Shown here: positions 13,706 through 15,433 of the stretch, piece by piece
How the letters are laid out: the number at the start of each line of letters is the position of its first letter
How positions within the stretch are numbered: the first letter of the stretch is position 1
Assembly (NCBI GenBank): GCA_017467535.1
Contig: JAFUST010000073.1
Span: forward strand, 1 to 39,090
Origin: Prevotella sp.
GTDB taxonomy: Bacteria > Bacteroidota > Bacteroidia > Bacteroidales > Bacteroidaceae
Length of the DNA: 39,090 nucleotides
Direction: 5' to 3'
Notes under the pieces: generated by a model
What the model was told of the DNA's origin: nothing
The model's database searches: none
What the model saw: the letters and a program-made list of their open reading frames with translations, nothing else
Position numbers and translations under genes: made by a program

Positions 13706-14218
13706 CTAACGATAATTAGGGGTACCCTTCTCGCGATTAAAAATGTCGCGCAAGATTATCTCCTGTATATCCGGGCGAGTTTCAAGAACACGGCACAAGG
13801 ACATGATATAGGTGGTGAACTTCTCCGGCAGATTTTCCACTCTCAGCCATGAGTCTTCCAGTCCGTTCCACTTGCCACGAAATTCTTTCTTGGTAAGTGA
13901 GATAATTTCCCCCTTCCTTCCACACTCCATATACTGCCCGTCTTTATATGACCACTTCCCATAGTCGTGAGGCTTTATGTCCACGGTGCCATCAGGATAG
14001 ATAAAGAACTGCGCAAAGCAATACTCTCCGTCAGGAGTGTATATCTTCACGGCAGAAAAGTTCTTTCCCATATCCAACTTCTCACCTTTCGCATTGGTAT
14101 AGCCATTGAACTTCCATACACCGGCCATCATCTTTTCCTGCTCCGTCTGGGCAGAGGTGTTTGTTACGCCGACAAATGCCATCAGCATCATCAGGCAAAT
14201 TGCTTTTAAATGTTTCAT
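13706..14218 (-). CDS. Small exported protein, lipocalin/DUF4488-like
   Basis: A 170-aa protein starting at ATG 14218 with signal peptide MKHLKAICLMMLMAFVGVTN, cleavage near TSAQ. The body has GVWKFNGYT, a GEKLDMG turn and VKIYTPDGEYCF, then GTVDIKPHDYGKW: the pattern of small Bacteroidales beta-barrel proteins of the DUF4488 or lipocalin-like type. The assignment is by eye and tentative. The same pattern (GTWELHE, GQRVDV, YRFYEDDGTYYVAEL) occurs in the periplasmic part of the regulator encoded just upstream. No promoter is visible in the 52-nt gap, so the two are probably co-transcribed. The frame can be extended upstream to 14323, but that would overlap the regulator and hide the signal peptide. 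Confidence 0.7.
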   Translation of the reverse strand: MKHLKAICLMMLMAFVGVTNTSAQTEQEKMMAGVWKFNGYTNAKGEKLDMGKNFSAVKIYTPDGEYCFAQFFIYPDGTVDIKPHDYGKWSYKDGQYMECGRKGEIISLTKKEFRGKWNGLEDSWLRVENLPEKFTTYIMSLCRVLETRPDIQEIILRDIFNREKGTPNYR

Positions 14219-14270
14219 CGTATCACTGTTTTTTAGTTTTATAAAATTGTTACTCGAGTAATTGCCATCA

Positions 14271-15266
14271 TTAAAGGTTACGGATAAATTCGTCCAGTTC
14301 CTTTGCACCTCCCTTCTCTCCAAACAATTTGTAGTAGAGCCTGCTGCGTATAGAACTGATACTGCTATATTCCCTGTACGTGTGAATGGCTATGGCCGAT
14401 GGAGGAATGCCCAGTTTGGTAAGCATGCAGACGCGTAGTTCCACTTCTGAGAGTTGCCCCATCTCTGCCAGCCTTCTGAAGAACATGGGATAGGCCTCCA
14501 TCATCTGAATCTCCAACTCCTCCCATTCGTCCTGTTTCAGTGCCGGCCCTTCGTATAAGCGCTGGCGCAAAGCCAAGAAATAGTCAGAGTGGATGAATGC
14601 CGTGGATTGTTCGTGCTTGGCTCTCCACCTTATTACTATATATAGTGAACCACCGCAAACAACGGCACCGAGTACAATCAACCATATCCAAATGTTTGCG
14701 CTGCTTGTTTCTGACAATTTCGGCACAATGTATTGAGTTTTTCGACCACTATTTGGCCGAAGTGCACATTCCACAGTTCTCTCGATTTCCGAGACGCTCT
14801 TGGCGGGAAATTTGTCGTTCCTTACATAGATTTCAACATAATCACCGCGATCAATACCTATGGTATGATTGTCCATAATGTTCAAGTTTGTCATCCTACC
14901 ATGTTCTATATAGACTGTATCATATGGCGACATCATAAAGAAATACTCCGACATTTCATGGGGTTTTACAGCCTCCTGGTTGTCGCTACTAGTCAGTTCT
15001 GCCACGTAGTATGTGCCGTCATCTTCATAGAATCGGTACCACACATGTTCGTATCCCGTGTTCACGTCAACTCGCTGCCCGGAGAGAAGCAGAAGTTCAT
15101 GCAGTTCCCAAGTGCCTGTAATTCTGAATTCGTTTCCTTCATCCTGTTGTTCCTCATGTGAAACTCCACACCCGGCAAGCAGGAAAGCAAGCCAAAAGAG
15201 CAGCCTCCCTGTTACCACGACTGCAAGCCGTTTCATTGTCAGTGTGTATACTTTATTCGTTTTCAT
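14271..15266 (-). CDS. Transmembrane one-component regulator with periplasmic sensor and SusR/LuxR-like HTH
   Basis: A 331-aa protein if started at ATG 15266; ATG 15233 gives a tighter signal MKRLAVVVTGRLLFWLAFLL with a lipobox-like LLAGC (Cys33 in the long form). Residues about 45-170 form a beta-rich domain resembling the adjacent exported protein. Residues 190-213 form a single membrane helix (IWIWLIVLGAVVCGG), followed by basic RWRAKHE, the inside signal. Residues about 245-330 match the cytoplasmic C-terminus of Bacteroidales TPR/SusR-type regulators: WEELEIQMMEAYPMFFRRL, then LSEVELRVCMLTKLGI, a helix-turn-helix and a final ELDEFIRNL. The architecture implies direct signalling across the inner membrane without a kinase. 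Target genes and ligand are unknown. Confidence 0.75.
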   Translation of the reverse strand: MKTNKVYTLTMKRLAVVVTGRLLFWLAFLLAGCGVSHEEQQDEGNEFRITGTWELHELLLLSGQRVDVNTGYEHVWYRFYEDDGTYYVAELTSSDNQEAVKPHEMSEYFFMMSPYDTVYIEHGRMTNLNIMDNHTIGIDRGDYVEIYVRNDKFPAKSVSEIERTVECALRPNSGRKTQYIVPKLSETSSANIWIWLIVLGAVVCGGSLYIVIRWRAKHEQSTAFIHSDYFLALRQRLYEGPALKQDEWEELEIQMMEAYPMFFRRLAEMGQLSEVELRVCMLTKLGIPPSAIAIHTYREYSSISSIRSRLYYKLFGEKGGAKELDEFIRNL

Positions 15267-15290: not shown

Positions 15291-15321
15291 CAAAGGTACA
15301 ACAACGCACTGAATCAACAAA
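15291..15321 (-). promoter_or_regulatory. Promoter of the regulator operon
   Basis: On the minus strand, TACCTTTG (plus 15291-15298) and TTTG (plus 15318-15321) are 19 nt apart. The start site lies near 15284, so only ATG 15266 or 15233 can be used, not codons upstream. Confidence 0.7.
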
Positions 15322-15433
15322 ACTTTTGGATTCGCGATTTATTCGCAAATCATTTGCACCACCAGGAATGTTAAACTTTACTAAAGCAAAGCGAAAACTG
15401 ACAAGGAGGAAAGCGTATGTGCCAACTTTTTTG

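What the first reader, a model, noticed from the sequence alone, without database searches (positions are those of the whole stretch)
13706..15266. Transmembrane one-component regulator paired with a soluble exported protein resembling its sensor domain
The upstream gene encodes signal peptide, periplasmic beta domain, one membrane helix and a cytoplasmic SusR/LuxR-like helix-turn-helix. The gene after it encodes an exported 170-aa protein with similar spacing of GxW, a GE/Q-K/R-x-D turn and a YxxDGxYxxA strand. No promoter separates them. A regulator reading the periplasm without a kinase, co-expressed with a free version of its own sensor domain (decoy, ligand carrier or co-sensor), would be a system I do not know described.
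Basis: partly seen in the sequence, partly recalled or inferred. Interest (0 to 1): 0.7.

Follow-up and report, generated by a model that had tools for sequence, protein, structure and literature searches.

The report
Membrane regulator with exported sensor look-alike
A rumen Prevotella relative carries a gene switch that sits in the inner membrane and probably senses the outside directly, and beside it a gene for a free, exported relative of the switch's own sensing domain; the pair recurs in many related species together with a likely control site, which suggests a small self-contained sense-and-respond circuit.

Summary
The regulator (14271-15266, minus; 331 aa) has a lipobox signal peptide, a predicted lipocalin-like barrel, one membrane helix and a C-terminal LuxR/GerE-like HTH (weak assignment). 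The next gene (13706-14218) encodes a soluble exported protein homologous to that barrel (HHalign E 4.7e-11; both models share their best PDB relatives). In the best 80 of 103 related loci, 80 of 81 exported genes have the regulator upstream on the same strand; the other lies at a contig end. The pair occurs twice in this genome.

New here: in relatives both promoters usually carry 11-bp-spaced TGC[AG]A repeats beside a Bacteroidota promoter. In 398 genus genomes, 48 of 52 matches to that operator-plus-promoter pattern lie at these cassettes. Most relatives give the exported gene its own promoter and operator; in the window they lie only before the regulator, so the genes probably share one transcript.

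Best reading: a self-controlled one-component circuit whose main visible output is a free homologue of its own sensor. Sister regulators precede other exported genes (thioredoxin-like, GLPGLI), which favours 'regulated effector' over 'obligate co-receptor'. Ligand, activation, DNA binding and interaction are unproven.

The parts
14271..15266 (-). Transmembrane one-component regulator, 331 aa (start ATG at 15266; ATG at 15236 also possible)
   Evidence: homologues; model (pLDDT 86.3, pTM 0.52)
15168..15179 (-). Lipobox L-A-G-C (residues 30-33); Cys33 conserved in at least 90% of 68 regulators
   Evidence: 65 of 76 full-length relatives match a lipobox-like pattern
14820..15116 (-). Periplasmic lipocalin-like sensor barrel (residues 51-149)
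   Evidence: AF2 model; Foldseek PDB (best 5byp E 1.1e-3, 4qrl E 1.8e-3; no hit at E 0.001 or below)
14631..14687 (-). Membrane helix, residues 194-212
   Evidence: hydropathy (75 of 76 full-length relatives have one at this place); helix 188-225 in the model
14322..14447 (-). Cytoplasmic LuxR/GerE-like HTH core (residues 274-315), recognition helix SSISSIRSRL
   Evidence: model; HHalign to GerE domains of related genomes E 8.5e-4 (probability only 9.6), reversed control 0.6; no Pfam match
13706..14218 (-). Exported lipocalin-like protein, 170 aa: type I-like signal peptide, 8-strand barrel (residues about 33-126), two C-terminal helices
   Evidence: pLDDT 84.5; best 4qrl E 2.6e-5; homology to sensor
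14219..14270 (-). 52-nt gap without a Bacteroidota promoter motif
14250..14261 (.). Palindrome TTACTCGAGTAA in the gap; occurs once in each of three genome assemblies, always at this spot
15331..15358 (-). Probable operator: TGCAAA, TGCGAA, CGCGAA at 11-bp spacing (two strict repeats and one variant)
   Evidence: same kind of array before the regulator in 72 of 78 rows and in the gap in 65 of 79
15291..15320 (-). Probable promoter: TTG, 19-nt spacer, TACCTTTG
   Evidence: consensus TTTG / TAnnTTTG, passage in PMC7366714

Best explanation
A self-contained inner-membrane one-component circuit. The regulator is anchored by an N-terminal lipid and a TM helix, so its lipocalin-like barrel faces the periplasm and its LuxR/GerE-like HTH the cytoplasm. 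The HTH binds TGC[AG]A repeats spaced 11 bp (one helical turn, same face of the DNA) directly upstream of the -33 box, and on a periplasmic signal activates its own gene and the exported gene. The exported protein is a free homologue of the sensor barrel and is the regulated effector: a periplasmic lipocalin-like binding protein that carries or soaks up a ligand related to the inducer, thereby also damping the signal. In most relatives the operator is repeated in front of the exported gene; in the window lineage that promoter is absent and the two genes share the upstream one. Shown by computation: homology, predicted fold, topology, conserved pairing, operator plus promoter almost confined to the cassette. 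Inferred: lipidation, binding of this regulator to the repeats, activation rather than repression, ligand, feedback.
For: Sensor and exported protein homologous with the same top PDB folds. Pairing: searched with the exported protein alone in 100 genomes, 9 of 11 matches stand beside a regulator and the 2 others are truncated; 80 of 81 exported genes in 80 loci, the 81st at a contig end (73 clusters at 95% identity); 32 of 34 loci with an exported gene among 40 family-level regions, 26 of the 32 new; two cassettes in this genome. Repeats: runs of at least 2 in 65/79 gaps and 72/78 upstream rows, against 0.25-0.38% of shuffles. Operator-plus-promoter pattern: 52 matches in 40 of 398 genomes, 33 within 300 bp before an exported gene, 15 at 0.3-2 kb before one (the place of the regulator's promoter), 4 elsewhere; the backwards control pattern hits 1 genome. 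All 6 scored loci with TGCGA-type operators have an altered recognition helix, against 1 of 70 others; two cassettes within one genome can differ in both (L100/L118 in P. communis, L068/L081). The exported protein is better conserved than the regulator's N-terminal part (mean identity 0.66 against 0.42), and sister regulators without it precede other exported genes: fits an effector role.
Against: On a tree the operator and helix variants changed only 2 and 3 times, giving 2 independent pairs, too few for significance; the cut-off for operator class was set after looking; L045 and L085 have altered helices but too few repeats to score. The window's own array is weak. Ten of 77 gaps lack the full promoter pattern. 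Faster evolution of the sensor than of the effector argues against one shared, conserved ligand. Two extra exported copies in P. communis have neither regulator nor operator. In sister loci part of the repeats lie in inverted repeats followed by T (L012, L273, L274, L276), which look like terminators rather than operators (L274 and L276 again). Sequence cannot tell activation from repression. HTH assignment is weak.
Confidence: 0.5

Rival explanations
1. Co-receptor: the exported protein pairs with the regulator's periplasmic barrel, as VtrC does with VtrA, and the pair senses together.
For: Conserved adjacency; lipocalin-like partner; VtrA/VtrC and ToxR/ToxS precedent (PMC9214523, passages and one section read); single transcript probable in the window.
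Against: The regulator has a predicted barrel of its own. Six sister regulators read stand without the partner beside them. Exported gene usually has its own promoter. No specific sensor-partner co-evolution (r 0.45 against 0.45 for HTH). Two exported copies without a regulator beside them exist.
Confidence: 0.2
2. Decoy or titrating feedback: the exported protein takes the inducer away from the sensor, or blocks the regulator, so that the response is brief.
For: Same predicted fold and homologous domain; probable control by the same kind of operator as the regulator.
Against: No functional data; the exported protein is conserved more strongly than the sensor, which suggests a job beyond titration.
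Confidence: 0.15
3. The TGC[AG]A arrays belong to another, global regulator, and the adjacent membrane regulator only shares the neighbourhood.
For: Phylogenetic support for regulator-operator covariation rests on 2 events.
Against: Arrays with promoter are almost confined to the cassette and to genomes that have it (48 of 52 matches, 39 of 40 genomes); paralogous cassettes in one genome have different operators.
Confidence: 0.1
4. Ordinary operon of an unrelated regulator and an unrelated lipocalin-like protein, with chance similarity.
For: Several solved Bacteroides proteins have lipocalin-like folds.
Against: Sequence homology above shuffles, profile match, conserved pairing.
Confidence: 0.03

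Closest known systems
VtrA/VtrC, ToxR/ToxS and other co-component systems of enteric bacteria (PMC9214523)
   Same: Transmembrane HTH regulator without a kinase, neighbouring gene for a lipocalin-like periplasmic protein, direct membrane-to-DNA signalling.
   Different: Topology is reversed (here periplasmic N-terminal domain, C-terminal HTH; orientation and OmpR-like HTH of VtrA/ToxR recalled, the latter also in the abstract of PMC5693285 seen); the regulator has a lipocalin-like barrel of its own, homologous to the partner; the partner is soluble; host group is Bacteroidota.
BlaR1 and class D beta-lactamases (PMC5957439, passages read)
   Same: Logic: a membrane sensor whose extracellular domain is structurally homologous to a secreted effector of the same ligand class.
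   Different: BlaR1 acts through a protease and the repressor BlaI; here the sensor is fused to the DNA-binding domain and the homologue is the adjacent, apparently regulated gene.
TPR-TM-HTH regulators of Bacteroidota (DUF6377-like; for example G000:C101, locus L003; TPR label recalled from sequence)
   Same: Related HTH, lipobox-like N terminus (weak DUF6377 matches in 9 of 68 regulators).
   Different: Helical repeats instead of a lipocalin-like sensor; no exported-family neighbour seen in L003.
Bacteroides lipocalin-like proteins 4qrl and 5byp (PDB)
   Same: Predicted fold.
   Different: No detectable sequence relation in the PDB sequence search; a tie to a regulator was not looked for.

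Membership tests
Co-component (VtrA/VtrC, ToxR/ToxS) superfamily | Adjacent gene encodes a lipocalin-like periplasmic protein | tested here: met
Co-component (VtrA/VtrC, ToxR/ToxS) superfamily | Regulator with N-terminal cytoplasmic HTH and C-terminal periplasmic domain (orientation recalled) | tested here: not met
   order is signal peptide, barrel, TM, HTH
Co-component (VtrA/VtrC, ToxR/ToxS) superfamily | Partner with a membrane anchor (abstract calls the two-protein sensor membrane-tethered; TM of VtrC/ToxS recalled) | tested here: not met
   0 of 81 exported relatives have a TM beyond residue 30; 80 of 81 fit a loose type I signal-peptide pattern, 4 of 81 a lipobox-like one
Co-component (VtrA/VtrC, ToxR/ToxS) superfamily | Heterodimer of the two periplasmic domains | not testable with these tools
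   no complex prediction on hand; distance correlation shows no excess
Lipocalin-like (calycin) fold | 8-stranded barrel like known lipocalins | tested here: met
   predicted models only; Foldseek 4qrl E 2.6e-5 for the exported protein; 5byp E 1.1e-3 for the regulator
Pfam Lipocalin_4 (PF13648) | Score above the curated cut-off | tested here: not met
   15.7 bits against 22.4 for P0002; 7 of 75 members match at E up to 0.1, best 0.0015
LuxR/GerE HTH (PF00196) | Pfam match above cut-off | tested here: not met
   none for P0001 or 5 HTH tails including the window's; GerE is not among the 25 of 72 families shown for 68 regulators
LuxR/GerE HTH (PF00196) | Colinear profile match over the HTH core | tested here: inconclusive
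   HHalign E 8.5e-4 but probability 9.6; reversed control E 0.6
SusR | Homology to SusR of B. thetaiotaomicron | not tested
   no SusR sequence was fetched
DUF6377 / TPR-TM-HTH regulators | TPR sensor domain | tested here: not met
   sensor is a predicted beta barrel

The most novel reading that the evidence does not exclude
A class of one-component signalling cassettes in Bacteroidota, doubly anchored by lipid and TM helix, in which a lipocalin-like domain was duplicated into a membrane sensor and a secreted effector. The circuit's only detectable targets are itself and the free copy of its own sensor; cassettes multiply in a genome and gain orthogonal operators by matched changes in recognition helix and repeat.
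Probability: 0.4. Interest if true: 0.75.

Novelty: new variant of a known kind. Interest (0 to 1): 0.62.

Why it matters
For membrane-bound one-component regulators, targets and ligands are often unknown (own knowledge). Here the probable target, the probable operator and a soluble homologue of the sensor come in one small cassette, so ligand, DNA binding and feedback can be tested directly. It would extend the idea of lipocalin-based transmembrane regulators from enteric pathogens to rumen Prevotella relatives with a different architecture, and gives a natural series of paralogous cassettes with different operators. If the ligand is a rumen lipid or another small hydrophobic compound it would open a sensing route in an abundant rumen group.

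Tried and rejected
Pfam and NCBIfam on both proteins gave no assignment; on the relatives only scattered weak matches. Profile searches of PDB sequences found no convincing relative (best E 0.067). Mirror-tree test for a specific sensor-exported link: negative. Wider regulon, two-repeat pattern: in this genome 12 hits, 5 at the two cassettes; of the 7 others 4 look like the reverse complement of a -7 box (TGCAAAGRTA), 3 remain (G000:C9:8215, C93:1986, C99:14766), the first noted as a lead. In P. communis 14 hits, 7 at two cassettes, 7 others all -7-box-like; in five more genomes many off-cassette hits are not of that kind and were not followed. The 4 off-cassette matches of the stricter pattern: three (G129, G047, G197) were read and show no common gene; G151 was not read apart. 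Recurrent neighbours exist only in minorities of 80 loci (receptor-like 13, M56/BlaR1-like 11, GLPGLI 8; names by motif or recall, not searched). Extra exported copies in P. communis checked for an operator: none. Literature searches for a described system; their listings show no such pair (two were for promoter and BlaR1 background). Truncated exported remnants without regulator (L041, L043) are told apart from the 9 paired of 11. L046 lies at a contig end. Of 80 pairs the 77 with a gap under 400 nt gave the gap statistics (others 659, 1178, 2429 nt). L047 and L096 (cut by contig ends) and L108 (split) have only part of a regulator in the frame. L066 is counted twice among the 78 upstream rows. 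Near-identical loci were not removed: 81 exported genes form 73 clusters at 95%.

Full report
The observation. The regulator starts with a lipobox signal peptide (LAGC; Cys33 at least 90% conserved in 68 rows), then a beta domain, one TM helix (194-212) and a C-terminal helical region; the exported protein has a type I-like signal peptide and no internal TM. The shared motifs reflect homology: BLASTP of the two E 7e-8; an HMM of eight sensor domains hits 80 of 81 exported relatives at E<1e-3 and none of 1620 shuffles (1305 reported at E up to 10); profile-profile E 4.7e-11 over 126 columns.

Fold. AlphaFold2 models with 75 and 68 sequences reach pLDDT 84.5 (exported) and 86.3 (regulator; pTM 0.52, so the placement of domains is uncertain). 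Foldseek against the PDB gives the same Bacteroides lipocalin-like entries for both: 4qrl E 2.6e-5 and 5byp E 3.3e-4 for the exported protein, 5byp E 1.1e-3 and 4qrl E 1.8e-3 for the regulator, which has no hit at 0.001 or below. TM-scores by target length are modest (0.53-0.60). The two models were not superposed directly.

Conserved pairing. With the exported protein alone, 100 relatives gave 11 matches in 8 genomes: 9 stand beside a regulator, 2 are truncated and do not. One scan of genome contigs with the exported family (an alignment of 9 such paired proteins) found 103 relatives, of which the best 80 loci were returned, mainly ruminant Prevotella-type MAGs plus the complete genome of P. 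communis E15-14. Of 81 exported genes there, 80 have the regulator (in three cases only a part of it in frame) upstream on the same strand; the 81st lies at a contig end. Median gap 140 nt, 77 of 80 under 400 nt. In 398 genomes of the genus, 49 carry a match to the exported profile, a few of them only through a regulator's sensor or weakly; in 301 genomes of the family 65, in 11 of 30 genera; in 247 of the order 5, of which one besides the window's own is strong. From the 79 places of the family list I took 40 regions (covering 41 places): 34 hold an exported gene, 32 of them with the regulator near it (L269 in reversed order with a 4-nt overlap; L251 and L253 about 1.7 kb apart; L264 split) and 2 without (both on the P. 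communis contig, by its length); 5 more hold a regulator alone and 1 neither. Six of the 32 are loci already among the 80, so 26 are new. The window genome has a second cassette on contig C16.

Sister regulators. The exported-family profile also hits the sensor of some regulators directly (E about 5e-10 to 3e-17), which bridges the two families. Six of this kind were read (L012, L273-L277). None has the exported partner beside it; three precede thioredoxin-like genes and two GLPGLI genes (named by visible motif); L275 has two other genes before a GLPGLI gene. TGCAA-type repeats lie in several of these gaps, but in L012, L273, L274 and L276 part of them form inverted repeats followed by T, which look like terminators. 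So the exported lipocalin is one of several exported genes that stand after such regulators.

Probable operator. Printing the gaps showed repeats TGCAAA-N5-TGCAAA just before a promoter. At least two TGC[AG]A at 10-12 bp spacing are in 65 of 79 gaps and 72 of 78 upstream rows, against 0.25% and 0.38% of shuffles. A Bacteroidota promoter (TTG, then TAnnTTTG; consensus in PMC7366714, passages read) lies in 67 of 77 gaps against 0.15 expected. Two repeats plus promoter give 52 matches in 40 of 398 genus genomes: 33 within 300 bp before an exported gene, 15 at 0.3-2 kb before one, 4 elsewhere; 39 of those 40 genomes have an exported-profile match; the backwards control hits one genome. In the window, the array (15331-15358) and promoter (15291-15320) lie only before the regulator; the gap has neither, but has a palindrome TTACTCGAGTAA that occurs once in each of three related assemblies, always there.

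Does this regulator bind these repeats? Of 76 loci scored, 69 have neither a TGCGA-type operator nor an altered recognition helix, 6 have both, 1 has only the helix change (L115). Two cassettes in the same genome can differ in both (P. communis L100 TGCAA with STISTVRSRL, L118 TGCGA with STISTMRSRL; L068 and L081). On a tree there are only 2 operator changes and 3 helix changes, 2 independent pairs, which cannot reach significance. This is suggestive, not proof; the cut-off of 0.3 for the operator class was chosen after seeing the data.

What the exported protein does. It evolves more slowly than the N-terminal part of the regulator (mean identity 0.66 against 0.42 over 74 loci without the window clade), and its distances follow that part no better than the HTH (0.45 and 0.45; 0.76 and 0.78 with the window clade). 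With its own operator-bearing promoter in most relatives, and with other exported genes after sister regulators, the simplest reading is a regulated effector: a periplasmic binding protein. A co-receptor or decoy is possible. The different rates also warn against assuming the same ligand.

Known systems. VtrA/VtrC and ToxR/ToxS combine a transmembrane HTH regulator with a lipocalin-like partner (PMC9214523: passages and the section on functional implications read; that Bacteroidota are rich in transmembrane regulators is said in PMC10269533, passages read). 'Bacteroid' and 'Prevotella' do not occur in the main text of the former. Topology, sensor barrel and soluble partner differ here, so this is not a member by the features tested, though it may work alike. 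BlaR1, whose sensor domain resembles class D beta-lactamases (PMC5957439, passages read), is a precedent for a sensor built from an effector fold. The literature searches named in Tried and rejected showed no description of the present pair in the held library.

Verdict. New variant of a known kind; interest 0.62.

Noticed in passing
window 14250-14261: 12-bp palindrome TTACTCGAGTAA between the two genes, present once per assembly in this and two related genomes (those of L044, L045), always in this gap.
   Followed up: partly
L002 (G000:C16) 811-2470: Second full cassette in the same genome with its own operator-bearing promoters.
   Followed up: yes
L239, L240 (contig of 3551722 bases, the length of P. 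communis NZ_CP091794.1): Two extra exported copies without a regulator beside them and without operator.
   Followed up: partly
L012, L273-L277: Sister regulators with exported-like sensors near thioredoxin-like or GLPGLI genes.
   Followed up: partly
L282 / G000:C9:8215: TGCAAAC-N4-TGCAAAC site before a lipoprotein gene and an outer-membrane receptor-like gene (labels by eye); possible distant target.
   Followed up: partly
L043 1498-2097: ORF in which a Crp/Fnr-like N terminus (label recalled) runs into the C-terminal half of the exported family; remnant, chimera or assembly error.
   Followed up: no
L003 1483-3114: Paralogous protein with helical-repeat-like N-terminal part, lipobox-like start and a related HTH.
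   Followed up: no
   Followed up: no
L283 / G796:C16: Strong exported-family match outside the family (E 7e-83); transfer or contamination of an assembly.
   Followed up: no
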